Shown piece after piece: positions 567-35,488 of a stretch of 64,000 nucleotides of DNA. Both the position numbers and the translations under genes were made by a program. Position 1 is the stretch's first letter; every line of letters begins with the position of its first letter. This DNA comes from Pseudovibrio exalbescens (GTDB taxonomy: Bacteria; Pseudomonadota; Alphaproteobacteria; Rhizobiales; Stappiaceae): positions 372,001 to 436,000 of the forward strand of contig NZ_JAQZAJ010000001.1 of assembly GCF_028737195.1 (NCBI RefSeq), written 5' to 3'. The notes beneath the pieces were generated by a model. The model saw only the letters and a program-made list of their open reading frames with translations. It was not told the origin of the DNA and did no database searches.

Positions 567-611
567 TGGTGAGCCCGCACGGGTTCGAACCGTGGACCTA
601 CTGATTAAAAG
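567..611. repeat. Left attachment site (45-bp tRNA-Lys 3' duplicate)
   Basis: These 45 bases are identical to 35413-35457, which form the 3' part of the tRNA-Lys gene from the anticodon loop through the encoded CCA. Identity stops sharply on both sides (566 versus 35412, 612 versus 35458). There is no tRNA 5' half here, so this is the displaced copy made by site-specific integration, not a tRNA gene. Confidence 0.95.
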
Positions 612-1199: not shown

Positions 1200-2402
1200 T
1201 TACCGCAACCCGCCCTGGTCCTTGAGCCATGAGCATAGCTTGACCATTGCCGCATCGGCCTGCGCTTCGGTGGTGCCGAGATAGTGCTTCAGGATCTCAT
1301 TGGCTGACTTGATCGAGTGGCCGGTAATTGAGCAGATCTCTGGTACTGTGCAGCCGGCGTTAGCAAGCCAGGTCACAGCGGTGGCGCGCAGGTCCTTGTC
1401 TTTGAACGTTGCAAGGCTTGGGGTGGCTGGTATGCCAAGTTCCGGATCTCCCTTGCTCGCCAAGTTTCGTACTTTTCGGAAAATGTTGCTGTAGTAGGTG
1501 TTGCCGGTGGCCGTTGAGAAGGGTTCGCGGCTGCGCTCGTTAAGGATGACATTAGGGTAGGTGACCTTCCAGCCCCTACGCCGGCGGGTTGCGGCCGTCA
1601 GGCGGGAAGATAATTCCGGCATTTCAGCGATGGATACCTGAGCCCCGGTCTTTGATTGGCGGAAGTAGACGCGCCCGTTCTTGCGGCCAGCTTCTTCCAG
1701 GCGCAGGCGGTCCCCCTGGCGCTGACCGGTGCAAAGCCCAAGCATGATGCTGTCGCCAATTTCCGGACGGCCATAGGCATCAGCCGCAGCGATGAGGGCG
1801 CGCATCTCAGCCAGCGTGCCGACGCGCGGGGCCGCCTTGCTCTGGCGCATACCCAACTGACGAAAAACTGGGCCCACAACACCTGTTTTGGACCGATGAC
1901 GATCTGCCCAACTCCAAGCACTGGATAGCGCTGCACAAATGGTGCGGGCGTGGCTGTCTCCTTTGTCTCTTCGCAACTTTCTATAGATGCCGTAGGCGAT
2001 CTCATGAGTGATTGCGGCAGTTGGGGCAGCAAGCAGATCCGGATCCCATCGTTCCAGCGCTTTTATGTCGTTTGCGTAGCCATAGCGGGTTTTGGCTTTC
2101 TTCTCTTGAAACACATCGGACTTCTGCCAGTCGGCCAGAAGATGACCCACAGAGTAAACAGCACGCTTTGTCGTTGGTGGAGTTATTTTTTTCCCGGAGG
2201 ATTGGCTGCTGCGGCGAGCGGCAATTTCAATCTGTTTTGCTTCCGCCCACTTCGATGCTTCGTTTGCAGTCATCCATTCGCCGGTGGGATTCTTGAGGTC
2301 TTCGCCCTTGAAGCCTAATGCCCGCAGCTTGGGCCCCGGCGTGAAGCGCGGGCGGCCATCCCGCCACGCAACGTTTGGAATTTTGATCTTAATGGTCGCC
2401 AT
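1200..2402 (-). CDS. Tyrosine recombinase / phage integrase
   Basis: This 400-residue integrase would join and excise the element at the tRNA-Lys core site. The C-terminal half carries the catalytic signatures: a first arginine in LGLCTGQRQGDRLRL, Arg339 in DLRATAVTWLA, His362 in the GHS motif, and the nucleophile Tyr374 in KHYLG. The histidine usually found just before the second arginine box (HxxR) is replaced by Lys-Asp, a tolerated variation in this family. The N-terminal part resembles an arm-binding domain. Its start overlaps the end of the 38-aa frame at 2389-2505, making it the last gene of a leftward xis-like operon. A short 6-bp hairpin at 1159-1175 lies just past its stop. Confidence 0.95.
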   Translation of the reverse strand: MATIKIKIPNVAWRDGRPRFTPGPKLRALGFKGEDLKNPTGEWMTANEASKWAEAKQIEIAARRSSQSSGKKITPPTTKRAVYSVGHLLADWQKSDVFQEKKAKTRYGYANDIKALERWDPDLLAAPTAAITHEIAYGIYRKLRRDKGDSHARTICAALSSAWSWADRHRSKTGVVGPVFRQLGMRQSKAAPRVGTLAEMRALIAAADAYGRPEIGDSIMLGLCTGQRQGDRLRLEEAGRKNGRVYFRQSKTGAQVSIAEMPELSSRLTAATRRRRGWKVTYPNVILNERSREPFSTATGNTYYSNIFRKVRNLASKGDPELGIPATPSLATFKDKDLRATAVTWLANAGCTVPEICSITGHSIKSANEILKHYLGTTEAQADAAMVKLCSWLKDQGGLR

Positions 2403-3181: not shown

Positions 3182-3496
3182 TTAATCCGGACGGAATATC
3201 CCTAACCATATTAAGATCTGAACAACGAGAAAAATCGGAAGCGCTATGACGATTAAGAAGCCACTGATTGCTAAAACCGGGCTGAGGAGATGAGCCAGCA
3301 AGAAAATACAGAAAACATCGAATGCGCTGCCGAGAGCCTCATGGGCAACAGCACCAAGAAAAGCGCTGGCACAAACGCTATATGCTAAATAGCCAAGGAA
3401 AAAGTTGCTGGAAATTATAGAGATTGCACCGTCTTTAATAAAATCAAATAGGTCTTTTAGTGTTATCCGAGAATTGTCTTGAGGATGGTTAGGCAT
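3182..3496 (-). CDS. Small membrane protein encoded behind the repressor
   Basis: A 104-residue protein with an N-terminal polar stretch (MPNHPQDNSRITLKDLF) and three hydrophobic segments, at about residues 23-45, 55-72 and 77-97. The frame starts 34 bases before the repressor stop, so it is likely cotranscribed with the repressor and expressed in the lysogen. I recognise no family. A lysogeny-expressed membrane protein next to a repressor would fit superinfection exclusion, but that is inference from position. Its transcript points into the excisionase-integrase unit. Confidence 0.6.
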   Translation of the reverse strand: MPNHPQDNSRITLKDLFDFIKDGAISIISSNFFLGYLAYSVCASAFLGAVAHEALGSAFDVFCIFLLAHLLSPVLAISGFLIVIALPIFLVVQILIWLGIFRPD

Positions 3497-3789
3497 TTTT
3501 GCAGATCCTCTTCTGATGCGGATAATAGTTTTTTTTCAATCTCACGGCGTACTGAAGCGGTGCTTGGATCTAGATCTAGTAGCTGCCCAGGGGTGCAGCC
3601 GTACGCCTCTGCGGCACGTTCAATAAAGTATTGTGTATATTGTGTTTTACCTGACTCTACGCGCGATATCAGAGGTGCGGACAGTTCGAGTTTTTCGCCC
3701 GCCTGAGACTGGGTGAGGCCCGCGTTTAGTCGCCATTTTTGAATATACCGGTGACTGTAGGGTCGATGAGTTTTAGTAGATGCAACCAT
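3463..3789 (-). CDS. XRE-family repressor (CI-like)
   Basis: A 108-residue protein with a classic helix-turn-helix of the Cro/C1 type at about residues 16-52 (LNAGLTQSQAGEKLELSAPL, then ISRVESGKTQYT) and a short helical C-terminus. It lacks a LexA-like self-cleavage domain, so induction would need another signal or an antirepressor. It is divergent from the Cro-like gene at 3865 and the intergenic region holds the shared palindromic operator. It is the best candidate for the lysogeny repressor. Its ATG has a TACAAT hexamer only six bases upstream, suggesting a leaderless mRNA. Confidence 0.8.
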   Translation of the reverse strand: MVASTKTHRPYSHRYIQKWRLNAGLTQSQAGEKLELSAPLISRVESGKTQYTQYFIERAAEAYGCTPGQLLDLDPSTASVRREIEKKLLSASEEDLQKCLTILKTILG

Positions 3790-3795
3790 GGCGTA

Positions 3796-3801
3796 ATTGT
3801 A
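3796..3801 (-). promoter_or_regulatory. -10 hexamer TACAAT of the repressor promoter
   Basis: On the minus strand TACAAT lies six bases before the repressor ATG, so transcription would start at or very near the start codon. Lambda cI from PRM is likewise leaderless. A poor -35 (ATGGCC) sits 17 bases upstream, which would fit a promoter needing activation. Confidence 0.4.
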
Positions 3802-3855
3802 TCCTCAGCGGGGTCTTTGGCCATGCAATCACATTAAAAATTGCTTGACGTGCAA

Positions 3856-3870
3856 TTGCATTAGATGCAA
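3856..3870. promoter_or_regulatory. Operator TTGCATTAGATGCAA between repressor and Cro-like gene
   Basis: A perfect 6-3-6 palindrome matching 3131-3145. Its right half contains the first possible ATG of the Cro-like gene (3865), so binding here would block the rightward early promoter or translation start region. An adjacent 10-bp palindrome TGCAATTGCA (3851-3860) overlaps it. Confidence 0.7.
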
Positions 3871-4125
3871 GTTGAGCGTATGTGTTGTCAGCATCCACTC
3901 CAGACCTATCTCAAGCGACAAAGCCTGAGGCGTGAAGATTTCGCGCAGCGGTGTGGCACAACGCTTCCGACGTTGTCCCGCATCATCAAACGCAAGCAAA
4001 AGCCTTCGCTCGACCTGATTGAGCGGATGGTAGAAGCGACCAATTGGGAGCTTACGGCCAACGACTTTCTTTCCATCAAGCCTCCTGAAGGGGTGCCCGT
4101 GCGGGATGAAAGGAACGTAGCATGA
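3865..4125 (+). CDS. Cro-like XRE regulator
   Basis: A protein of 81-86 residues with a helix-turn-helix near its N-terminus (RREDFAQRCGTTLPTLSRII) and a tail NWELTANDFLSIKPPEG reminiscent of Cro/C2-type regulators. Two starts are possible, ATG 3865 inside the operator and ATG 3880. I cannot decide between them because neither has a strong ribosome-binding site. It is the first rightward gene, divergent from the repressor, and its stop overlaps the next gene by four bases. Its likely role is to turn down the repressor and early transcription during lytic growth. Confidence 0.75.
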   Translation: MQVERMCCQHPLQTYLKRQSLRREDFAQRCGTTLPTLSRIIKRKQKPSLDLIERMVEATNWELTANDFLSIKPPEGVPVRDERNVA

Positions 4126-4544
4126 GCGCAGTGGAGCGGCCTCTCCCTCGTATCCTTGGGCGCAAGCGTCTATCCCGCGCTTTCGAGGCGCAGCATCGCG
4201 CCGTGCCGGATCTTGCGCGCTATGAGGACCAGCTTCTGGCGGAGCGGGTGGCCGCGTTCTTGCGCCGGACGTATCCGGAGCACACGGCAAAGCGGGTGGC
4301 GCGGGATACGGACGTGCCGTGGAAGACAGTCAAGAACTGGTTGCAGCTGCGTGCCAGCCCCAAGGCGGCGCATTTTCTCATTCTCGTGAACACGTATGGC
4401 CTGCCGTTTCTGGATGCTGTTGATCCGGACGGGCTGCCGTTTCTCAAGGATGTGCGCACGGCCATGGAGCGCCGCGATTTGCTCAAGCGGTTTGAAGAGG
4501 TGATGGCAACCGCCAACAAGATGCGGGGAAGCAATGAAAGTTGA
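4122..4544 (+). CDS. Hypothetical HTH protein of the early operon
   Basis: A 140-residue basic protein whose middle (HTAKRVARDTDVPWKTVKNW) looks like a helix-turn-helix in which ARDTDVPWKTVKNWL would be the recognition unit. It starts in an ATGA overlap with the Cro-like gene and its end overlaps the next start (4534) by 11 bases, so it is translated as part of the early operon. I infer a regulatory or replication-accessory role. I do not recognise a named family. Confidence 0.7.
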   Translation: MSAVERPLPRILGRKRLSRAFEAQHRAVPDLARYEDQLLAERVAAFLRRTYPEHTAKRVARDTDVPWKTVKNWLQLRASPKAAHFLILVNTYGLPFLDAVDPDGLPFLKDVRTAMERRDLLKRFEEVMATANKMRGSNES

Positions 4545-4923
4545 TCAGGTGTGCGAGATCGCAACTGCCTCGGGTCGTGGTGTTCGGGGTGTCGTGAAGC
4601 TGGAGGATGATCGGTTCTCTCTTGCCGAGCAGATCAGTCCAGATCAACCCGCCGGTTTGTTGGTGGCCCCGTTTGCCTTCGAGCGCGGGGTGCTGTTTGC
4701 GCAGAACCTTCTGGCCGGTCATCCGGATGCAATCAACCATGAAAAGGCGGGCCTGATTGTCTCTGTTACCTTGATGGCCTTGCTTTCCCAGTTTCACCAG
4801 TCCCTCCCAGACCAGAGCCCTGCCTGCGAGCCTGGTCCAACTGCCGGTGCGGATGCTGCGGCATCTGCGCCGGCCTCTTTCGTCGGCAGTGGACTGAGCG
4901 AGGGGAGGCGGCAGCGTGTTTAA
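4534..4923 (+). CDS. Hypothetical early protein, 129 aa
   Basis: This protein begins MKVDQVCEIATASGRGVRGV and has no family I recognise. The first two thirds look folded, with a hydrophobic helix around LIVSVTLMALLSQF, and the last 40 residues are Ala/Ser/Pro-rich and probably disordered. It overlaps the previous gene and its stop at 4921-4923 falls inside the first unit of the 100-bp repeat. Role unknown. Confidence 0.6.
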   Translation: MKVDQVCEIATASGRGVRGVVKLEDDRFSLAEQISPDQPAGLLVAPFAFERGVLFAQNLLAGHPDAINHEKAGLIVSVTLMALLSQFHQSLPDQSPACEPGPTAGADAAASAPASFVGSGLSEGRRQRV

Positions 4924-5112
4924 ATTAGCAATTCCTAATACGCATATGCGTTTGTCAATCGTTCCGGCCTTTTGGAGGGGTTATCCACAGGATTGGCGGA
5001 TTTGGAGGCGCAGGCGTGTGTAATTTAGCAAAACCTGAAACGCACGTGCGTTTGTCAACCGTTCCGGGGTCTCGGCGTGTTTGTCCACAGTGCTTTGCGG
5101 AAGTGGACAGGG
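4913..5112. other. Candidate replication origin: two 100-bp repeats with DnaA boxes
   Basis: Two units start at 4913 and 5013, exactly 100 bases apart. In the first 54 bases they differ at nine positions. Each holds a perfect palindrome (CGCATATGCG at 4941-4950, CGCACGTGCG at 5041-5050) followed by TTTGTCAA, and, in register, a DnaA-box sequence (TTATCCACA at 4981-4989, TTGTCCACA at 5081-5089). The second unit overlaps the start of the putative initiator gene, as the lambda origin lies within gene O. A regulatory repeat is the alternative. Confidence 0.55.
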
Positions 5113-5615
5113 TGCGCGCCAAGGCTGGCTTAAGCAAGGCGCAACTTTGCGCGGCGGCTGGTGTTCACCCGACCACCTACACGCGGGCTGAGCGCTCGGG
5201 TTTCTGCCGGGCGTCCACCTTGCGCAAACTCCGTCATGCCCTGGCCGAGTTGCAGCGAGAGCAAGACATGGAAATGCGGATGGGGGACCGTGTGGCGCCC
5301 CTTTACCGCATGGTGTTTGCCATGTTGGCGGTAGAGGCGGGGTTGTGTCCGGAGACGGCGCTTGCTCTTGAGCCGCGGCAAAACCGGCACCGGGATCCGA
5401 ACTGGGCAGCCGCGGCCCAGGTACGGCGGCAGGCGCTGTACCTTGTTGTGACCTTGCTCGATGTCCCGGGGGCTGTTGCAGCGGATGCGGTTGGTGTTTC
5501 CAAGCAAGCGGTCTCCAAGGCGCTGTCGCAGGTGGAGGATAGCCGCGACGATCCGGCGACGGATGCGCTATTGGCGCGGATGGAAGCGCTGGCGCGGCAG
5601 GAGGTGGCGGCATGA
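5016..5615 (+). CDS. Putative replication initiator or regulator with two HTH segments
   Basis: A 199-residue protein beginning at GTG 5016 (MCNLAKPETHVRLSTVPG), although a later start is possible since its first codons lie in the second 100-bp repeat. One helix-turn-helix is visible around KAGLSKAQLCAAAGVHPTTY. A second around RRQALYLVVTLLDVPGAVAA and DAVGVSKQAVSKALSQVE has a layout like the DNA-binding domain IV of DnaA, though identity is too low to call. Its stop overlaps the primase start (5612). Place and architecture suggest an origin-binding initiator. A transcription regulator is equally possible. Confidence 0.65.
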   Translation: MCNLAKPETHVRLSTVPGSRRVCPQCFAEVDRVRAKAGLSKAQLCAAAGVHPTTYTRAERSGFCRASTLRKLRHALAELQREQDMEMRMGDRVAPLYRMVFAMLAVEAGLCPETALALEPRQNRHRDPNWAAAAQVRRQALYLVVTLLDVPGAVAADAVGVSKQAVSKALSQVEDSRDDPATDALLARMEALARQEVAA

Positions 5616-6721
5616 GCCAGACACCTACGCTGAAGGAAATCAAACAGGCCCTGCAAGGATTGCAACTGGAGAGCGTTGTGCGCGATCTGGTGCCCGATGG
5701 TCGCCGGGTTGGCGGATGCTGGAGTGCCCGGTGTCCGTGGCGAGAAGACCGAAAGGGTGGGTCTTTCGTCGTGTGGCTGGGTGGTACGGCCAAGGGGGCA
5801 TGGAAAGATTATGCCACCGGCGACAAGGGGGACCTGATCGACCTGATTTGCAGGGTGTTGAACCTGGACAAGCCAGGCGCTGCCCGCTGGGGCATGGAGC
5901 GGCTTGGCTGGGGCCAGATGAGCGACCAGGACCGAAAGAACATGCGCCGGCGGATCAAGGCCAACGCCACCCGGGAAAAGCGGGAAGCGGACAAGAAGAG
6001 GGCCGAGGCCATTGCCGCCGCCCGGCGTCGTTGGGCCAAGGGACAGGCCATTGAGGGCACTGTTGTTGAAAGGTATCTGCACAGTCGGGGCATCGATACA
6101 TCCCGGATACCGGGGCTTTTGAAATTCTGCCGCTATCTGCCCGCGCAAGAGTGGTGGTACGGCGCAGTGTTCGAAGAGCGTGAAGTCAATGGCGAGTTGA
6201 CGCGGGTAAAGGTAAAGCCGGGACCGCGTTTCCCGGTGATGATGAGCCGGATGAGCGCGGCCGATGGCTGCTTGCAGGCTTTGCACTACACGTTTTTGAA
6301 GCCCGACGGGACGGGCAAGGCGGATGTCCCGGATCCGACCAAGGCAAAGCTGATGTGGCCGCAGACGCAAGGCTCCATCATATGGGTTTCACGGGGCGGC
6401 GGGCCTGAGTACGCGGGCCCATGCGTGGTAGGCGAGGGCATTGAGGACGCAGGAACTGCGGCCCTTGCCTGCCCGCAGCTTATGACAGCGGCGGCCGGAT
6501 CCCTTTCCGGCTTGCTGCATATGCCGACCCAATTGCCCGCGAGAGCGCGGGGCAAGATTACCGGCTGGATCATTCTGAAAGACAACGATTGGGGAAAGCC
6601 GCAGGCGGCCGCGCTGTTTGACCGGGCAATCAAGCGCCTGGAAGACACAGGTCTGCCGGTTGTGGCCGTGTCCAGCGACAACGGAAAAGACTTTAACGAC
6701 CAACTCAGGGGGGTCTCATGA
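5612..6721 (+). CDS. Phage DNA primase (zinc finger plus Toprim)
   Basis: A 369-residue primase. The N-terminus has a CHC2-like zinc-binding region (GGCWSARCPWREDRKGGSF, residues about 34-52), followed by the WKDYATGDKGDLIDLI segment typical of phage primase N-termini and a basic helical linker. The C-terminal half has Toprim features: VVGEGIEDAGTAAL with the catalytic glutamate, ILKDND with the metal-binding aspartates, and a terminal NGKDFNDQL. It would lay RNA primers at the phage fork. It overlaps its neighbours on both sides by four bases and is followed, after one gene, by the helicase. Confidence 0.85.
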   Translation: MSQTPTLKEIKQALQGLQLESVVRDLVPDGRRVGGCWSARCPWREDRKGGSFVVWLGGTAKGAWKDYATGDKGDLIDLICRVLNLDKPGAARWGMERLGWGQMSDQDRKNMRRRIKANATREKREADKKRAEAIAAARRRWAKGQAIEGTVVERYLHSRGIDTSRIPGLLKFCRYLPAQEWWYGAVFEEREVNGELTRVKVKPGPRFPVMMSRMSAADGCLQALHYTFLKPDGTGKADVPDPTKAKLMWPQTQGSIIWVSRGGGPEYAGPCVVGEGIEDAGTAALACPQLMTAAAGSLSGLLHMPTQLPARARGKITGWIILKDNDWGKPQAAALFDRAIKRLEDTGLPVVAVSSDNGKDFNDQLRGVS

Positions 6722-7371: not shown

Positions 7372-9183
7372 TTGGAACACGCAGGCGAGCACGCGATAGC
7401 TGAAAAGATTGGCAACGCGGCGCGGAAAATAGAAGTCATGAGCCGGCCTCATGCGGATCCTGATGCTCGGCATCACCGGGATGGGTATCCGGCCGGAGAC
7501 TGGGAGCCTGATGATCTGGGATTGCCGCCGGATTGTCCGGTTCAGGTGCTGGGGATGGATGGCGATGCCATGCATCTGGTTGACGCAATTGGGCAGCTAG
7601 CAACTGTAACCAATCCAAACCAGATGGGGCAGGGATATATCCAGCGGCTGTTCGGAGATCGGCAGAACTATCTTTACTGGGCATGGCCCCGCCACGATAA
7701 AGACGGACAGGTTGTTGGCTGGAAAGCGGACAAGGTGCGCGAGGTGCTCTACACGGCGGCTGCTCGCAAAGGCGTATACAACAGCGTCGAAAGGGTTCGT
7801 GGTCTCGGTGCGTGGACGGATGATCACGGCGAGCTGGTGCTTCACCTGGGCAATGCGCTTTGGATCAAGGGTGAGCTGCATGAGACCGGCGAAGTGGGTG
7901 GTTACTTCTATCCTCGGCGGCCAAAGCTGCCCCGACCATCTGAAGAACGTGTAGATGGTGACATGAACCCCGGGCCGCAGTTGTTCGAGGTGCTTCAGAC
8001 TTGGAACTGGACGCGGCCGGAAGTGGATCCGTTCCTGTTTATGGGCTGGATCGGCGCCGGGTTTCTTGGTGGTGCACTGCCATGGCGGCCTTCTATGTTT
8101 CTGGTTGGTGACAAGGCGGTGGGTAAGTCCACGCTGCAAGACGTGGTGCAAACGGTCTTCGGTGGCGGTCTCGTATCAACGCCAGACACGTCCGCAGCTG
8201 GTATCTACCAGCGGATCAAACAGGACTCGTTGCCGGTTGCTGTTGATGAACTTGAGGCCGAGGCGGACAACAGCAAGGTTATGGCTGTGGTAAAGCTGGC
8301 GCGCCTGGCTGCGTCCGGTGGGGTGATGTTGCGTGGCGGATCTGACCACGCGGGCACGTCCTTCCAGGCTAGATCTACCTTTCTGTTTTCGGCGATCAAT
8401 CCGCCACCATTGCCGCCGCAGGACCTATCGCGACTGGCTGTAATCAGTATTGGGAAGCTTGATCCGGAGAAAAGCTCAAAGCCTCCGCTTCTCATGGATG
8501 CAACAACCGTCGGGCCGCGCTTGTTGCGGCGTTTGGCTGATGGCTGGCCCCAGTTCCACGTGCTCTATGAAGCTTATCGGGAAGCGCTGAAAAGCGGCGG
8601 GCATGATGGCCGAGGACAGGACACCTACGGCATCTTCTTGACGTGTGCTCATCTCATGCTTGGTGATGATTGGCTGGAGGACAATGGGTATCCCATTGAG
8701 AATCTTGCCAGTTGGGGGCAGTTGCTCTCGGCTAGTTCGCTGCCGGAGAGAGAGAACGCGCGTGAGAACTGGCGGGCTTGTCTCGAGCATCTATTATCCG
8801 CCCGGGTTGATGTGTGGCGCAATGGAGAGCGCCACAACGTGGGTGGCTTGCTGGAGGACCTCGAAGGCGGGAGTGTGTTGGATTTTGAAAGGGTGCGAAA
8901 ACAGTTGGCGAGTGTGGATCTTTGGCTGGCAGACAACAAAAAGACGGGCCAAGGCATGTGTCTAGTGGTGCCAAACAAGGCGAGTGGGGTGGCAAGCCTT
9001 TTTCGGGACACTCCTTGGGGTGGGCCTGGCGATGATGGGGTGTGGTCCACGGCTTTGCGACAGGGGCCACCGGATATCGTCTTACACGACAAGGCCATCA
9101 ACAAGTTCAAGATCAACGGGGTGCAAAGACGCTGCACCCTCATCTCACTCAAGGAGTTCGATCGATACTGTTTGGAAAACTGA
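7372..9183 (+). CDS. SF3-like replicative helicase/ATPase
   Basis: A 603-residue protein read from TTG 7372 with GGGGGAT as ribosome-binding site; ATG 7438 is an alternative. The Walker A motif is GDKAVGKST at residues 246-254, then VAVDELEAE as Walker B and a conserved TFLFSAINPP segment like sensor 1. The layout fits phage superfamily 3 or D5-like helicases that act with a primase at the fork. It is the last gene of the early operon and sits directly before an iteron array. Replication by such proteins from adjacent iterons is known in P4 and in SaPI islands. Confidence 0.8.
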   Translation: MEHAGEHAIAEKIGNAARKIEVMSRPHADPDARHHRDGYPAGDWEPDDLGLPPDCPVQVLGMDGDAMHLVDAIGQLATVTNPNQMGQGYIQRLFGDRQNYLYWAWPRHDKDGQVVGWKADKVREVLYTAAARKGVYNSVERVRGLGAWTDDHGELVLHLGNALWIKGELHETGEVGGYFYPRRPKLPRPSEERVDGDMNPGPQLFEVLQTWNWTRPEVDPFLFMGWIGAGFLGGALPWRPSMFLVGDKAVGKSTLQDVVQTVFGGGLVSTPDTSAAGIYQRIKQDSLPVAVDELEAEADNSKVMAVVKLARLAASGGVMLRGGSDHAGTSFQARSTFLFSAINPPPLPPQDLSRLAVISIGKLDPEKSSKPPLLMDATTVGPRLLRRLADGWPQFHVLYEAYREALKSGGHDGRGQDTYGIFLTCAHLMLGDDWLEDNGYPIENLASWGQLLSASSLPERENARENWRACLEHLLSARVDVWRNGERHNVGGLLEDLEGGSVLDFERVRKQLASVDLWLADNKKTGQGMCLVVPNKASGVASLFRDTPWGGPGDDGVWSTALRQGPPDIVLHDKAINKFKINGVQRRCTLISLKEFDRYCLEN

Positions 9184-9294: not shown

Positions 9295-9520
9295 GGGTAC
9301 ACCGGGTACACCTTGGGTACACCAAGTGTACCCTCGCTTTCTTTTTTAAAACAAAGGGTTAGAGCAAGGGTACACCGGGTACACCAAAATAGAGCCCCAT
9401 ATGTGTGTGCGCACGCATAAGGAAACAGGTGTACCCAGTGTATCCAGTGTACCCTTTTTATATAACTTATTGATATATATAGATAATCTTAAGGTACACC
9501 ACAGGGTACACTGGGTACAC
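9295..9520. repeat. Iteron array with AT-rich core (candidate origin)
   Basis: Twelve copies of the octamer GGGTACAC or its complement occur in 226 bases. Six are on the left (9295, 9304, 9315, 9326 inverted, 9368, 9377), three inverted copies are at 9429, 9438 (one mismatch) and 9447, and three are on the right (9492 with one mismatch, 9504, 9513). Many neighbours are spaced nine bases apart. Bases 9455-9491 between the groups contain only four G or C. Iterons flanking an easily melted core next to a helicase gene are the hallmark of phage and satellite origins. The stretch 9184-9605 holds no convincing gene. Confidence 0.75.
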
Positions 9521-9605
9521 TTTGAGAATGGAAAGACGTCAAACCCATGATCAGCCTGAGTGAAGACATTAAAATATTCAGTTTTATCAATGGGGTAGCT
9601 GTGTG

Positions 9606-10193
9606 ATGACGGATCAGAGCAAACAGCTTGGTTTGTTGCCTGACCTCGATTTCTCGCCAGAAGACGGGGGTGGGGCTGCGCACACGCCGGTGTTTCCGGC
9701 GGCGCGGCGCGAAACTGGCGCGGATGAGGCGGGCAAGCGTGGTCCAGGTCGCCCCAAAGGTGCAAAGAACCGCAAGACGCAGCAGTTGCAGAAGCTCTGG
9801 ACAGCCAAGGGGCATCGCGATCCGCTGATGGCGCAAGGCGAGTTCCTGTCCAGTCATCCGCTGGATCTGTTTGAGTGGTTCCTGACGCTGGAGGCCAAAA
9901 CCCGGGGCATGGATCTGGAAGAGGCGCGCAAGAAGTACCAGGAAGGCAAGCTGCCGGAAGTACCAAGCGTGGCGCAGATTGTGGCCATGCAGATGAAAAC
10001 GGCTGATGCGGTGTCGCCTTACCTGCATGGAAAGATGCCGGTGCGCGAGGATACGGATCCGGACGAACGCTTGCCAGTGCTGATGATCGACCTGGGAACG
10101 GACCAGACCCAGCAGGGGCGGTACAACGGCGACGAAGCCGAGGTGATGAGCATCGGCGGACCAGCCACGGACGGCGAGAGCGAGGGTCAATAA
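9606..10193 (+). CDS. Putative terminase small subunit
   Basis: A 195-residue protein starting at ATG 9606 (GTG 9603 is also possible). An AT-hook-like GPGRPKGAKNRKT lies about residues 47-59, a feature of many phage small terminase and DNA-recognition proteins, followed by a helical middle and an acidic tail. It comes just before the large terminase gene and after the iteron array. The assignment rests on the DNA-binding motif and the position. It would recognise the packaging site. Confidence 0.6.
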   Translation: MTDQSKQLGLLPDLDFSPEDGGGAAHTPVFPAARRETGADEAGKRGPGRPKGAKNRKTQQLQKLWTAKGHRDPLMAQGEFLSSHPLDLFEWFLTLEAKTRGMDLEEARKKYQEGKLPEVPSVAQIVAMQMKTADAVSPYLHGKMPVREDTDPDERLPVLMIDLGTDQTQQGRYNGDEAEVMSIGGPATDGESEGQ

Positions 10194-10642
10194 AATCAAA
10201 GACTTAGCGGGAGTGTAGAAAAAAGTCTCACGGTGGCAGGGTCTCACGAACAAGGTAACAGGCTGAAATGATTGGTAAAATGCTCTTGAGTGCAACTTAT
10301 TTAAAATCAGTGTACCTCTGCCGCGTTGCGCTTGCCTCACAGCCTGTGCGTGATGGGCTGCAGCTGCGTGGGTTGAGGGGGCTGAATCCTGCCGATCATT
10401 TTTGCCATAGAGCGAGCGCGAACTCGATTGCTGGCGGGCGGATCGGCAGAAACGCGCGCAGGCCTTTCCGGAAACGGCCACGGCTCCCCCTAGAGGGGTA
10501 TGCGCTCTCACACCGATTGGATTTTGAAACCGGCAAAACGGCGGTTTGTGGTGCCCACGGTGCGGGTCACAGGGCAGGAGTTTTGTCCAGGGCCGCGGTG
10601 AGGTGCGGAACGATGGCGGGTCGGGGTTGAGTGGGTATCAGC
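10194..10642. other. Gap between terminase subunits
   Basis: No firm gene. It holds two GTCTCAC motifs (10225-10231 and 10241-10247) preceded by AAATCAAAG, echoing the sequence just inside the left attachment site (631-681). A 33-codon frame at 10500-10601 (starts MRSHTDWILKPAKRR) has a fair ribosome-binding site (AGAGGGGT) but no confirmed homology. I list it only as possible. Confidence 0.4.
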
Positions 10643-12187
10643 ATGGTTGAGCAGTCCAGCGGCGCAGAACTGATTGCCCAGTACGAGCAGGATGAAGGCT
10701 TTGACCCTTATCACTACATCCCCCCGGGGCCGGTAGCGGCGAGCTTTATTCGTGATGATGTGCTGACCAAGGCAATCATGGGACCGGTGGGGGGCGGCAA
10801 GACCGTCTCCTGCGCCATGGCTCGGGTTGTTGCGGCCACGCGAATGCCGCCATGCAAGGGTGGCGTTATCCGGGATCGCTACGCAGTAGTGCGTTCCAGC
10901 TTTCGTGATGCGGAGAAAACCGTGTTGCAGAGCTGGCAGCAGTGGTTCCCCAAAACCTATCCCGGTTCCACCTGGACGGGCGGCAATGACCGGCCGGTCA
11001 CACACGTGCTGCGCTGGCGTTTGCCCAACGGCCTTAGGGTAGAGGCTGAAACAATCTTTGTGGGTCTTCAGGGCTCCACTGTGGAGAGCAAGCTGCGCGG
11101 CTGGGAGCTTTCCGGTGTCTGGCTGAACGAGCTCGACACCATCGATGAGAACGGCCTGCGATACTCGGAACAGCGTGTGGGGCGCTTCCCGAAAAAGACT
11201 GACCTGGCCGATCCGGCGGCCGTGCGCTTTCGCCAAGTACTGGGGGACTTCAACGCTCCGGACATGGATAACTGGACCTATGACGTGTTCGTGGCTGAGC
11301 CGAGCCCGGACAGGGTGCTATATGCCCAGCCTTCAGGCGTATCCTCAGCCGCTGAGAACGTGGCCAACTTGGAAGCGGACTATTATCAAAAGATCATTGA
11401 TAACGAGGAAGACTGGTATGTACGCCGGTTCGTGCACAATCAGTTTGGCTATAGCCGCGACGGCCTGCCGGTCTATCCAGAGTTCAATCCGGAGGTTCAT
11501 GTCGCTCCTAAAGTTCAGGAGCCGGATCAACGCTTGCCGCTTTTGATTGGGCTTGATGCCGGCCTGAACCCGGCTGCGATCCTTGGTCAGTGCCGTCCAG
11601 ATGGACAGTTGGTTATCCTGGACGAACTTGTGCCAGGGCAGGGGTATGGTGCGGAGCGTCTTGCTGAACTGCTTAATGAGCTGATCGCCCGGCGCTACAA
11701 TCGAGTACCCAAAATCATGGCATGGGCAGATCCGGCGGCTCAGTGGGGCGCGGACAAGGAAGGCGGACAGCTTGCCTGGATTGAGACCATGACACTGGCA
11801 CTCGGTGTGCCGGTTGGGGTGCCCGCCAATGGCAGCAACGAACTGGGCTTGAGGCTCAGTGCCGTGCGCCAGGAACTGACGCGGATGATTGACGGTCACC
11901 GGCCGCGCCTCTTGATCAGCCCCAATTGCAAAGTTCTGACACGTGGTTTCGCGAGTGGGTACAAGTACAAGAAACGCGCAAATGACAGTGGTCCAGCTTA
12001 TGATCCGGAGCCAAGCAAGAACGAGTATTCCCACCCGCATGATGGGCTGCAGTATCTGGTACTTGGGTATCGTGGACGGCCTACCGTGGTGAACGGATCC
12101 GCTGGTTCATCGAGAGCTCAATCATCTGCGCGGCCCAAAAAGGACTGGCGAAAACGGAAGGCTGTCTTTGATCCGCACCGGTTTTGA
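10643..12187 (+). CDS. Terminase large subunit
   Basis: A 514-residue DNA packaging motor read from ATG 10643. An upstream GTG at 10631 would add four residues. The ATPase domain has Walker A GPVGGGKT at residues 47-54 and a Walker B-like segment VWLNELDTIDENG. The nuclease domain begins near LIGLDAGLNPAAIL, with the aspartate expected of the RNase H-like fold, and includes MAWADPAAQWGADKEGG. It would cut and translocate phage DNA into the portal. The next genes are the ParB/methylase cargo rather than the portal, so the usual terminase-portal link is interrupted. Confidence 0.92.
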   Translation: MVEQSSGAELIAQYEQDEGFDPYHYIPPGPVAASFIRDDVLTKAIMGPVGGGKTVSCAMARVVAATRMPPCKGGVIRDRYAVVRSSFRDAEKTVLQSWQQWFPKTYPGSTWTGGNDRPVTHVLRWRLPNGLRVEAETIFVGLQGSTVESKLRGWELSGVWLNELDTIDENGLRYSEQRVGRFPKKTDLADPAAVRFRQVLGDFNAPDMDNWTYDVFVAEPSPDRVLYAQPSGVSSAAENVANLEADYYQKIIDNEEDWYVRRFVHNQFGYSRDGLPVYPEFNPEVHVAPKVQEPDQRLPLLIGLDAGLNPAAILGQCRPDGQLVILDELVPGQGYGAERLAELLNELIARRYNRVPKIMAWADPAAQWGADKEGGQLAWIETMTLALGVPVGVPANGSNELGLRLSAVRQELTRMIDGHRPRLLISPNCKVLTRGFASGYKYKKRANDSGPAYDPEPSKNEYSHPHDGLQYLVLGYRGRPTVVNGSAGSSRAQSSARPKKDWRKRKAVFDPHRF

Positions 12188-12633: not shown

Positions 12634-13998
12634 ATGAGCGAAAAAAAGACGACTATTGCCGTAGATCAATTGATATTAGCAACTGATAACCCAAGACACG
12701 AAGAAGTAGATAGTGAAGCTGCAGCTATTGCTCGGTTGTGTAACACGGAAAACATTGAACAATTGGCGCGCGATATATCCGAGCATGGTGTGAATCCAGC
12801 CGAAAGGCTGATCATCATCCCGCTAGATGAAGACGATGCAGAAGATGACGCTACTTTCATTGTCGCGGAGGGAAATCGTCGTGTCTGCGCGCTAAAACTA
12901 CTCAATGATCCAGATCTTGCTCCGGCCTCGATCCGAAAAAAAATCGAAGTTTATGCGAAACAGTGGACGCCCATTACCGAATTGGACGTCGTCGTAATTA
13001 CTGATGAAGCCCGAAGACGTCACTGGTTGATGCGAATTCATGATGGCGCCCAGAATGGCCGAGGCAGGATGCCTTGGAAATCCGAACAAAAAACGCGTTT
13101 CACCGGGGGTGGACGCAACGCTGTAGCGCAGTCGCTTTTGGATTATGCTCAAGCCGAAGGCATGTTGACGGCAGAAGAACGATCCGGCCGGATATCGCAT
13201 ATGGCGAGGCTTGTCGGGAATCCTCTCATCCGGGACGTCTTGGGCTTAAAAACCGAAGACGGCCCTGAGGAACTGAGACGAAATCGTTACAAAGCAGATT
13301 TCGATCTCGTCCTAGGTGAGCTTTTGGAAGAAACCAAGACGAAGTCACTTGGCTCCCAAGCAAAAAAAGAAAAAATCGACTCCTTCGCACATCAACTTCA
13401 GAATCTCGACGGGCTTAGCCATGATCGGATTGATGATTCTGAAATACTATTTTCTCAAAGTGATTACGATACTTCCAAATCCGATTCAGATGCCACCGGC
13501 CACGGTGGTGATGACGATACTTCCACATCCGATTCAGATGCCACCGAGGCGAAAAAGCCAAGCCGACCTCGCCCCGCAAAACGCAGCTACAATTTGGCAT
13601 GGTCGCAGGATATCGCAAATTCCCTTGAGAAATTAGGGTCGGAAAAGCTGTTGGAGTTGCATTGGTCTATTTGCACGGTGAACGCTCAAAAGCACGCGCC
13701 GTTAGTTGCTGTTGGCGTGTGGTCATTCCTTGACAGCCTGGCCGCTCTTGCTGGTGCAAGCGACGACAGGTCATTCGTTCACTTCTGGAAAGCTGGTGAA
13801 ATTAGTCGACTCGGTGTTGCGAAAGGCGACGCTGCCAAGACAATCAATAATGTTCTGGATCGACTATCCAAGGCAGGAAATAATACGAAACACGATGCCA
13901 AATCGGCGCATTTCGACTATCGCCAACTTGTTAACGATTGGACAGTTATAACCCCGTTAATTTTGGAGCAATTAAAAGAAATTAACAGTAATGAGTAA
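12634..13998 (+). CDS. ParB/Srx-fold protein with C-terminal HEPN-like domain
   Basis: A 454-residue protein of unknown function. Residues about 8-95 look like a ParB N-terminal (ParB/Srx) domain: NPR near residue 20, LARDISEHGVNPAERL, and EGNRRVCALKLL, where GNRR stands for the nucleotide-binding GERR motif. Then come a helical middle, an Asp/Ser-rich linker with a 16-residue repeat (about 276-305), a basic PSRPRPAKRS patch, and a helical C-terminal domain with LSKAGNNTKHDAKSAHFDY. That segment resembles the R/N-x4-H region of HEPN domains, which is inference. It overlaps the adenine methylase start by eight bases, so the two are a coupled pair. Visibly AT-rich against its neighbours. Confidence 0.7.
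   Translation: MSEKKTTIAVDQLILATDNPRHEEVDSEAAAIARLCNTENIEQLARDISEHGVNPAERLIIIPLDEDDAEDDATFIVAEGNRRVCALKLLNDPDLAPASIRKKIEVYAKQWTPITELDVVVITDEARRRHWLMRIHDGAQNGRGRMPWKSEQKTRFTGGGRNAVAQSLLDYAQAEGMLTAEERSGRISHMARLVGNPLIRDVLGLKTEDGPEELRRNRYKADFDLVLGELLEETKTKSLGSQAKKEKIDSFAHQLQNLDGLSHDRIDDSEILFSQSDYDTSKSDSDATGHGGDDDTSTSDSDATEAKKPSRPRPAKRSYNLAWSQDIANSLEKLGSEKLLELHWSICTVNAQKHAPLVAVGVWSFLDSLAALAGASDDRSFVHFWKAGEISRLGVAKGDAAKTINNVLDRLSKAGNNTKHDAKSAHFDYRQLVNDWTVITPLILEQLKEINSNE
13467..13546 (+). repeat. In-frame 48-bp direct repeat in the ParB-like gene
   Basis: Bases 13467-13498 and 13515-13546 are identical at 31 of 32 positions and lie 48 bases apart. They encode a repeated DTSxSDSDAT unit in a flexible acidic linker. 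Slippage here would add or remove 16 residues without a frameshift. Confidence 0.8.
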
Positions 13999-14851
13999 GT
14001 CGTCGTCTCCTCTTAGATATCCGGGCGGGAAATCTTGCCTTCTGCCCTTAGTTAGCAATTTGCTCAAGATAAATAGCTTGCGGCACCGCAGTTATGCAGA
14101 GCCATACGCGGGTGGCTGTGGGTTAGCGCTATCCCTACTATATGCGTCATTTGTCAGCGAAATCCATGTAAATGACATTGACGCTTCAATTTGGTCTTTC
14201 TGGTACTCCGTTCTGTCGGAGACAGAAGAGCTATGTGAGCGCATAAACACTGCAGAAATGTCAATTGATGAGTGGAGAAGACAAAAGGAAGTATATTCTA
14301 GTCAAGACGTAAGTGATCCCGTTTCACTTGGATTTGCTACATTCTATTTAAATAGGACTAACCGATCCGGAATTATTAAAGACGCTGGCGTCATCGGAGG
14401 ACTGAATCAGACAGGTAATTACAAGATGGATTGCCGATTCAATAAAGATGACCTTGAAAGACGCATTCGTCGCGTCGCAAAATACAAACGTCGAATTCAT
14501 TTATACAGATTAGATGCGTTGGAATTCATAAAAGAATCTCAGAAAATTACGCCGGAAAAGACTTTCTTTTGTATCGACCCTCCATATTACAAAAAGGGAT
14601 CAAGCCTATACACGAGTTTCTACAAACCAGATGATCACGCTTTGCTGGCTAAAACAGTACTTGATCTCGAAAAGCCATGGATTGTTACCTACGATAACAC
14701 CCCTGAAATACAGGAGCTGTATAATCATATGAGGCAATATTCGTTTGATGTAAATTACTCTGTACAAACCAAACGTGTTGGCAATGAATTGCTAATTGCT
14801 TCTGAAAATTTAAACGTCCCCAGCGAATTAGAGCGAAGAAAAGTCGCTTAA
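13991..14851 (+). CDS. DNA adenine methylase, D12 class
   Basis: A 286-residue N6-adenine methyltransferase. The SAM-binding motif SPLRYPGGKSCLLPLV is at residues 5-20, followed by YAEPYAGGCGLALSLL, and the catalytic motif is FCIDPPYYKKGSSLY near residue 195. Then follow WIVTYDNTPEIQELY and RVGNELLIASE, all in the order of DpnM/Dam enzymes. It is full length for the class. The start overlaps the ParB-like gene by eight bases. Two sampled 60-base lines hold 23 and 25 G or C, far below the virion genes, a sign of separate origin. The target sequence cannot be read from the protein. Confidence 0.9.
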   Translation: MSKSSSPLRYPGGKSCLLPLVSNLLKINSLRHRSYAEPYAGGCGLALSLLYASFVSEIHVNDIDASIWSFWYSVLSETEELCERINTAEMSIDEWRRQKEVYSSQDVSDPVSLGFATFYLNRTNRSGIIKDAGVIGGLNQTGNYKMDCRFNKDDLERRIRRVAKYKRRIHLYRLDALEFIKESQKITPEKTFFCIDPPYYKKGSSLYTSFYKPDDHALLAKTVLDLEKPWIVTYDNTPEIQELYNHMRQYSFDVNYSVQTKRVGNELLIASENLNVPSELERRKVA

Positions 14852-35412: not shown

Positions 35413-35457
35413 TGGTGAGCCCGCACGGGTTCGAACCGTGGACCTACTGATTAAAAG
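35413..35457. repeat. Right attachment site (45-bp direct repeat)
   Basis: This is the copy of the 45-bp repeat inside the intact tRNA-Lys gene. It covers the encoded CCA, acceptor 3' strand, T arm, variable loop, anticodon 3' stem and the first part of the anticodon loop. The prophage carries the sequence that rebuilds the tRNA 3' end. Confidence 0.95.
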
Positions 35458-35488
35458 TCAGTTGCTCTACCAGCTGAGCTACGGGCTC
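35413..35488 (-). tRNA. tRNA-Lys (UUU), CCA encoded
   Basis: Read on the minus strand, a 76-base cloverleaf. The 7-bp acceptor GAGCCCG pairs with CGGGCTC, the D arm contains AGCTCAGCTGGTAGAGC, and the anticodon stem ACTGA/TCAGT encloses CTTTTAA with anticodon UUU. The T arm has GGTTCGAACCC-type pairing, then discriminator A and CCA. The gene is complete and is the integration site of the prophage. Its transcription points into the prophage's right end. Confidence 0.97.

What the first reader, a model, noticed from the sequence alone, without database searches (positions are those of the whole stretch)
9295..9520. Twelve-copy GGGTACAC iteron array around an AT-rich core: candidate replication origin
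The octamers face both ways, many at nine-base spacing, and flank 37 bases with only four G or C. The array lies just after an SF3-like helicase gene. P4 and SaPI origins show the same logic, in which a helicase-initiator binds iterons beside its own gene. I know of no description of this iteron in a T7-like alphaproteobacterial prophage.
Basis: partly seen in the sequence, partly recalled or inferred. Interest (0 to 1): 0.75.

Follow-up and report, generated by a model that had tools for sequence, protein, structure and literature searches.

The report
Composite phage replication origin array
Beside its helicase gene this prophage carries a 12-site repeat array that is very probably its replication start point; dozens of related phages keep the same layout but change the repeat word, and the change goes together with one spot in the helicase that probably reads it.

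Summary
In detail: 12 octamers (10 exact GGGTACAC, 2 with one mismatch) at 9295-9520 around a 37-bp core with 4 G/C. The origin reading is well supported, and the feature is richer than reported. A layout score finds the same array, with different octamers, downstream of the helicase in 68 of 85 loci at 35% identity or more (window included); upstream regions 2 of 86, shuffles 0 of 94. The array reads as phage P4's ori layout (+++-/++) joined to P4's crr layout (--/++), each with an AT-rich gap. Between the halves lies an alternating pyrimidine-purine tract: 22 bp here, at least 13 bp in 58 of 59 non-redundant arrays. Octamers covary most with helicase residues 568-587, a C-terminal hairpin: AGAC with Gln585 (16/16), GGAAC with Lys (11/12), GTT with Ala/Ser/Thr/Pro/Leu (19/19). 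A terminase small-subunit gene adjoins most arrays, but covaries no better than control genes. Best reading: a self-loading Cch/SaPI-Rep-like AAA+ helicase starts replication here. The window's own Gln585 is an exception to the simple base rule. Binding and replication are untested.

The parts
9295..9333 (.). iteron block 1: GGGTACAC at 9295+, 9304+, 9315+, 9326-
   Evidence: layout as in P4 ori
9334..9367 (.). AT-rich gap A (11 of 34 G/C)
   Evidence: mean G+C 0.44 at this place over 54 loci
9368..9384 (+). iteron block 2: 9368+, 9377+
9398..9419 (.). 22-bp perfectly alternating pyrimidine-purine tract between blocks 2 and 3
   Evidence: longest such run in the window; 58 of 59 non-redundant arrays have one of at least 13 bp
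9429..9454 (-). iteron block 3: 9429-, 9438- (one mismatch), 9447-
9455..9491 (.). AT-rich core, 4 of 37 G/C: candidate melting site
9492..9520 (+). iteron block 4: 9492+ (one mismatch), 9504+, 9513+
   Evidence: blocks 3 and 4 laid out as in P4 crr except for the sign of the last site
7372..9183 (+). AAA+ helicase, candidate initiator (603 aa, TTG start as listed)
9073..9132 (+). codons 568-587 of the helicase: C-terminal hairpin region that covaries most with the octamer; codon 585 at 9124-9126
5612..6721 (+). Toprim primase (PF23639, PF13362; PHROG DNA primase)
9603..10193 (+). probable terminase small subunit (196 aa); no named family match, called from its place before terL and its conservation there
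10631..12187 (+). terminase large subunit
   Evidence: PHROG 979, E 5.5e-8
567..611 (.). left att repeat (45 bp, identical to 35413-35457)
35413..35457 (.). right att repeat inside tRNA-Lys 35413-35488(-)
1200..2402 (-). phage integrase-like gene
   Evidence: Pfam PF00589, E 2.8e-4, below its curated cut-off

Best explanation
The array is the replication origin of a temperate podovirus-like prophage. The phage's AAA+ helicase is the initiator: its C-terminal domain, through a beta-hairpin, reads the octamers; helicase rings assemble on the two half-arrays; the AT-rich gaps (9334-9367, 9455-9491) melt; and the neighbouring Toprim primase primes the exposed strands. The two halves reproduce the layouts of P4's ori and crr, which lie about 4.7 kb apart in P4 but are fused here; the alternating pyrimidine-purine tract between them would act as a torsional or bending element. 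Shown by computation: array, conserved layout, AT-rich gaps, tract, predicted helicase fold, covariation. Inferred: binding, ring loading, melting, priming, the role of the tract.
Confidence: 0.85

Rival explanations
1. The array is a packaging site (cosB or pac type) bound by the terminase small subunit encoded right after it, as lambda R sites lie before Nu1 (lambda recalled, no call).
For: TerS of this family was found after the array in 68 of 71 arrays and starts 0-157 bp after the last site in 59 of these. All 15 TerS matches (14 of 397 genomes) lie in genomes that also have the helicase.
Against: TerS covaries with the octamer (0.173) no better than primase (0.175) or TerL (0.238); helicase 0.30-0.35. 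L066-L068 have the same layout within 240 bp of the helicase without this TerS; in L067 a lambda-type TerS starts about 1.9 kb after the array. L156 has array and tract with the helicase but no TerS or TerL of the family in 11 kb. Seven TerL loci without the helicase (six genomes) all score under 5 and have no tract of 13 bp or more; only L127, L128, L129 and L215 hold 3 kb or more upstream of TerL, and L215's TerL is a partial match with a stop. Two of them do hold other short repeats: L127 one-strand copies at 5-269, L131 eight copies after TerL.
Confidence: 0.07
2. Dual use: an origin bound by the helicase that also serves as switch or packaging signal for the late operon starting with TerS.
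For: Position at the junction of replication and late genes in most loci; a weak sigma-70-like match at 9522-9551, 9 of 12, 1 found against 0.7 expected.
Against: No second binding factor shown; the promoter match is at chance level; L066-L068 and L156 do without this TerS.
Confidence: 0.2
3. An operator array for a phage repressor or activator (several HTH genes at 3463-5615), not an origin.
For: HTH proteins are encoded nearby; clustered inverted octamers can be operators.
Against: Two AT-rich gaps, the P4 ori/crr layout and covariation with the helicase hairpin are not expected; the HTH proteins themselves were not tested for covariation.
Confidence: 0.03

Closest known systems
Satellite phage P4 ori and crr with alpha protein
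   Same: Octamer repeats laid out alike: ori 0,10,21,43(-),86,96 against window 0,9,20,31(-),73,82; crr -,-,52+,70+,84- against window 9438-, 9447-, then 54+,66+,75+; AT-rich gaps; relative L157 uses GGTGAAC, the start of P4's GGTGAACA.
   Different: In P4 ori and crr lie about 4.7 kb apart, crr is duplicated, and neither holds an alternating tract (longest runs 5 and 7). The window's last site is + where P4 crr has -. Alpha shows no convincing profile similarity to the helicase (hhalign probability 1.6%, E 0.032, around the P-loop); primase and helicase are separate genes here.
PICI / SaPI origins with Rep helicases
   Same: Origin 3' of the replication gene, iteron sets flanking an AT-rich region (PMC6092414, passages); predicted fold close to SaPI5 primase-helicase and Cch.
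   Different: Here in a full-size prophage with head, tail and lysis genes; two such modules in tandem; a central alternating tract. [quoted passage not shown]
SCCmec Cch / Cch2 helicases
   Same: Cch (5dgk) is the longest top match, residues 47-598; Cch2's C-terminal domain binds repeats downstream of its gene (PMC7581432, passages).
   Different: The Cch2 site has three AAGTG repeats; SCCmec is not a phage.
Lambda cosB / phage pac sites (recalled)
   Same: Short repeats immediately upstream of terS-terL.
   Different: Array goes with the helicase where the two part (L066-L068, L156, TerL loci without helicase); TerS does not covary above control genes.

Membership tests
P4-type origin (ori + crr) | octamer layout +++-/gap/++ of ori | tested here: met
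P4-type origin (ori + crr) | octamer layout --/gap/++- of crr | tested here: inconclusive
   four of five sites match; the last is + in the window, - in many relatives
P4-type origin (ori + crr) | ori and crr kilobases apart | tested here: not met
   both halves within 226 bp; P4 4314-4590 and 9310-9413
P4-type origin (ori + crr) | initiator is an alpha-family primase-helicase | tested here: not met
   hhalign probability 1.6%; separate primase gene
PICI/SaPI origin | iteron sets flanking an AT-rich region, 3' of the replication helicase gene | tested here: met
PICI/SaPI origin | self-loading Rep helicase of SaPI/Cch fold | tested here: met
PICI/SaPI origin | satellite element without its own full set of virion genes | tested here: not met
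   major head protein, head-tail adaptor, tail, endolysin and holin genes present
PICI/SaPI origin | rep-ori segment maintains a plasmid | not testable with these tools
   needs cloning
Terminase cosB/pac site | site follows TerS/TerL whatever the replication module | tested here: not met
   seven TerL loci without helicase score under 5 and lack the tract; four of them have 3 kb or more upstream
Terminase cosB/pac site | TerS binds the repeats | not testable with these tools
   covariation gives no support beyond control genes
Z-DNA element | alternating pyrimidine-purine tract adopts Z form | tested here: inconclusive
   alternation strong, but TA steps are not avoided (0.110 against 0.060 background) and palindromy is also raised
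SF3 helicase | SF3 fold and motifs | tested here: inconclusive
   D5/E5 and NrS-1 among the Foldseek matches, but Cch, SaPI5 and MCM rank with or above them; motifs not tested

The most novel reading that the evidence does not exclude
A widespread phage family carries a composite origin: two P4/PICI-like modules (ori-like and crr-like) fused around an alternating pyrimidine-purine tract that flips to Z-DNA or bends to couple two helicase rings. Its octamer changes quickly while the layout is kept, because one position in the initiator's C-terminal hairpin contacts base 3 of the octamer (Gln-A, Lys-G, Glu-C, small or methyl-contacting residue-T). Replicon specificity can therefore switch by matched single steps, which would let related prophages share one cell, as in G589 and G501, each with two helicases beside different octamers.
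Probability: 0.35. Interest if true: 0.87.

Novelty: new variant of a known kind. Interest (0 to 1): 0.74.

Why it matters
[quoted passage not shown] here its elements appear, doubled, in full-size temperate phages, and the two halves resemble P4's ori and crr. That links satellite and phage replicons. The natural set of octamers and helicases gives a directly testable recognition rule for a self-loading initiator, and the conserved alternating tract poses a concrete question about DNA structure at an origin.

Tried and rejected

Limits and dropped rows. Relatives under 35% identity: the exact-count test found arrays in 7 of 18; the nine such loci put into one search were picked by hand, and 3 of 9 passed. 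The layout template was drawn from a few of the scored loci (window, L050, L051, L061, L067), so its upstream and shuffle controls matter more than the raw rate. The viral scan kept 80 of 144 relatives. A5 holds 66 of the 71 distinct viral reads plus the window. Covariation used 59 of 71 arrays after removing rows at 80% identity or more. One search left out five of the 59 (L055, L063, L138, L178, L179) for doubtful strand. The tract shows that the template probably read L055, L138, L178 and L179 on the wrong strand; motif similarity was taken over both strands, so this touches labels, not the correlation; L055, L178 and L179 were flipped by hand, L138 was not: on the other strand it reads GTTCCAC, and GGAAC-Lys would be 11 of 11. 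A chance run of 13 bp or more is not rare over 5 kb (27 of 85 upstream regions); the array-restricted test is the one that counts.

Full report
OBSERVATION. The window holds 12 octamers at 9295-9520: ten exact GGGTACAC and two with one mismatch. No other exact copy exists in the 64 kb. In order: 9295+ 9304+ 9315+ 9326- / 9368+ 9377+ / 9429- 9438- 9447- / 9492+ 9504+ 9513+. The core 9455-9491 has 4 G/C in 37 bp, tied with the 37-mer one base on for the lowest in the window. 200 dinucleotide shuffles of the 5 kb after the helicase reached at most 4 mixed-orientation exact 7-mers in 300 bp; the real sequence has 11.

CONTEXT. The element is a prophage with 45-bp direct repeats at 567-611 and 35413-35457, the latter inside a tRNA-Lys gene, an integrase-like gene at 1200-2402 (E 2.8e-4, below Pfam's cut-off), a Toprim primase at 5612-6721, the helicase at 7372-9183 (PHROG 21086 of unknown function, then a PHROG DNA primase), a probable TerS at 9603-10193, TerL at 10631-12187, head-tail adaptor and tail genes, and major head protein, endolysin and holin genes. 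The host is known here only by codes; the one relative that one search found in named genomes (50% identity) is a Beijerinckiaceae MAG.

ARRAYS IN RELATIVES. Helicase matches were found in 32 of 397 genomes of the order and 7 of 398 of the phylum, the window's own genome included in both, and in 144 viral stretches, of which 80 were kept. Each locus was first searched without assuming an octamer or layout: six or more exact 7-mers in both orientations within 300 bp occur downstream of the helicase in 50 of 69 viral loci and 18 of 22 genome loci at 35% identity or more, upstream in 3 of 61 and 0 of 21, and in 0 of 69 and 0 of 22 shuffles; below 35% identity it is 7 of 18. A layout score, whose template was drawn from five of these loci, then passes 68 of 85 loci at 35% or more (window included) and 3 of 9 hand-picked more distant ones, against 2 of 86 upstream regions and 0 of 94 shuffles. 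One of the two upstream passes, L156, is a real array 3.6-3.9 kb upstream of its helicase.

ONE LAYOUT, MANY OCTAMERS. Relative to the first block-3 site the usual layout is ++ near -64/-56, --- at 0, 8-9, 15-18, ++ near 58-64 and 69-76, then a site of either sign. The octamers differ: GGGGACAC, TGAGACAC, TTAGACAG, GGTTACAG, CGGTTAGG, TGGAACCG, GGTAACGG and others. Of 59 consensus words 50 contain AC at the place used to line them up. Over 54 loci, gap A has mean G+C 0.44 and the core 0.32, the gap between blocks 2 and 3 has 0.63; the core is below that gap in 54 of 54 (five of the 59 loci left out for doubtful strand).

P4 ORI AND CRR. The P4 record annotates its type 1 repeats. With GGTGAACA as +, ori reads + + + - / + + at 0,10,21,43,86,96 and crr reads - - / + + - at 0,9,52,70,84. 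The window's first half is + + + - / + + at 0,9,20,31,73,82; its second half, from 9438, is - - / + + + at 0,9,54,66,75 (a further - site lies 9 bp before). So the array looks like P4 ori and crr fused in one direction. The protein does not carry this over: the helicase profile against P4 alpha gives probability 1.6%.

THE ALTERNATING TRACT. Between blocks 2 and 3 lies CATATGTGTGTGCGCACGCATA (9398-9419), the longest perfectly alternating pyrimidine-purine run in the window; the next is 14 bp. In 58 of 59 non-redundant loci the array holds a run of at least 13 bp (median 22); in 56 of 59 it is the longest of the whole locus; control regions reach 12 bp in 1.3% and 15 bp in 0.2% of 2772 draws. 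The exception is L066 (6-8 bp); its kin L067 and L068 have 12 and 10 bp. Its centre lies near -20 in most loci. P4's ori and crr lack it. Composition does not decide its role: CG steps are enriched (0.557 against 0.485), TA steps are not avoided (0.110 against 0.060), palindromy is raised (5.47 against 4.95). Z-DNA, a flexible hinge and a cruciform all remain open.

WHO READS THE OCTAMER. Over 59 loci under 80% identity, octamer similarity was correlated with identity in 20-residue helicase windows, controlling for overall identity. The peak is residues 568-587 (partial r 0.312; none of 2000 permutations; best window ending before residue 545 is 0.169). The peak stays there with windows of 10 (0.356 against 0.158), 30 (0.234 against 0.158) and 40 residues (0.18 against 0.151, a small margin), and with 23 representatives under 50% identity (0.346 against 0.24). 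The stretch covers the strands 578-581 and 584-592 of the model. On the same loci TerS peaks at 0.173 (58 loci), TerL at 0.238 (57), primase at 0.175 (56), helicase at 0.30-0.35. All three controls pass their own permutation limits (0, 0 and 1 of 1000), so permutation alone does not remove ancestry; the comparison between proteins is the fair test.

RESIDUE 585. Sorted by octamer: AGAC 16 of 16 Gln; GGAAC 11 of 12 Lys (the twelfth, L138, Ser, was probably read on the wrong strand); GTT[A/G] 19 of 19 Ala, Ser, Thr, Pro or Leu; the other 12: GGGAC Ser, Ser, Pro; GCGAC Glu; L063 Glu in a gapped stretch; L060 Thr; L154 Pro; L157 Thr; L166 Asn; L167 Met; L183 Gln; window Gln. The window itself (GGGTACAC, Gln585) does not follow the simple base-3 rule. 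On a tree that leaves the hairpin out, near relatives switch base and residue together: L142/L192 GAGAC-Gln with L147 GCGAC-Glu, and L134 GAGAC-Gln with L140 GGGAC-Ser. Independent contrasts are few: AGAC-Gln 3.8 of 5 supported pairs the same way on average, none opposite, not significant. That these pairings resemble common amino acid-base contacts is recalled knowledge.

THE TERMINASE RIVAL. TerS of this family was found after the array in 68 of 71 arrays; in 59 of these it starts 0-157 bp after the last site and in 9 it overlaps, perhaps through start-codon choice, whereas the helicase lies 33-3333 bp away. Synteny alone would favour TerS. Against it: L066-L068 have arrays within 240 bp of the helicase without this TerS; in L067 the terminase genes are lambda-type by profile and TerS starts about 1.9 kb after the array; L068 shares those gene clusters, while L066's terminase was not identified. 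L156 has array and tract with neither TerS nor TerL of the family in its 11 kb. Seven TerL loci without the helicase, from six genomes, all score under 5 and lack a tract of 13 bp; four (L127, L128, L129, L215) hold 3 kb or more upstream of TerL, and L215's TerL is a partial match. Some of these hold other short repeats (L127 at 5-269 on one strand, L131 eight copies after TerL). TerS does not covary above controls. A double role for the region is not excluded.

COEXISTENCE. Genome G589 carries two helicases, beside GGGGACAC (L046) and GGTTACA (L066) arrays; G501 likewise (L044 GGGGACAC, L067 GGTAACG). Different octamers would keep two replicons apart; this is inference.

LITERATURE. [quoted passage not shown] PMC7581432 (passages): SaPI Rep and Cch2 bind downstream repeats with a C-terminal domain. 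PMC8263062 (passages): iteron divergence in PLE satellites under attack by a phage nuclease. PMC10386132, PMC10783043 and PMC8628076 were only term-searched: no 'iteron' in any, no 'origin of replication' in their main text. Ten library searches showed me, in their listings, no description of this array; no held paper contains Z-DNA, iteron and origin together. Most subscription papers are not held.

VERDICT. Origin of replication bound by the phage's own helicase: 0.85. Kind: a new variant, a fused P4/PICI-like origin in complete prophages with changing octamers and a conserved alternating tract. Binding and replication are untested.

Noticed in passing
9315-9333: Iterons 3 and 4 form an inverted repeat followed by a T-rich run, an intrinsic-terminator-like site (1 found against 0.6 expected): origin sites may double as the helicase operon's terminator.
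   Followed up: no
567-611 and 35413-35457: 45-bp direct repeats, the right one in a tRNA-Lys gene: prophage ends, about 34.9 kb.
   Followed up: partly
12634-14851: A gene with a weak ParB-like match (E 2.4e-5, behind families of unknown function) and a DNA methyltransferase gene lie between terL and the head-tail adaptor gene: possible cargo.
   Followed up: no
G000:C20:499383-499930: TerL-like stretch elsewhere in the same genome (56-70% identity, with stops): a decayed relative.
   Followed up: no
L156: Array and tract lie 3.6-3.9 kb upstream of the helicase rather than downstream.
   Followed up: partly
NZ_CP083549 (L015), Phaeobacter plasmids, Arsenophonus plasmids of 8-12 kb: Distant relatives of the helicase sit on phage-like plasmids and small Arsenophonus plasmids; only L015 was looked at, and its array is weak.
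   Followed up: partly
L155: Closest viral relative by helicase (68% identity) has GGGACAC octamers; its helicase frame appears to be interrupted.
   Followed up: no
L131:2620-2949 and L127:5-269: Other short-repeat clusters near TerL in loci without the helicase; they do not fit the layout and were not explained.
   Followed up: partly
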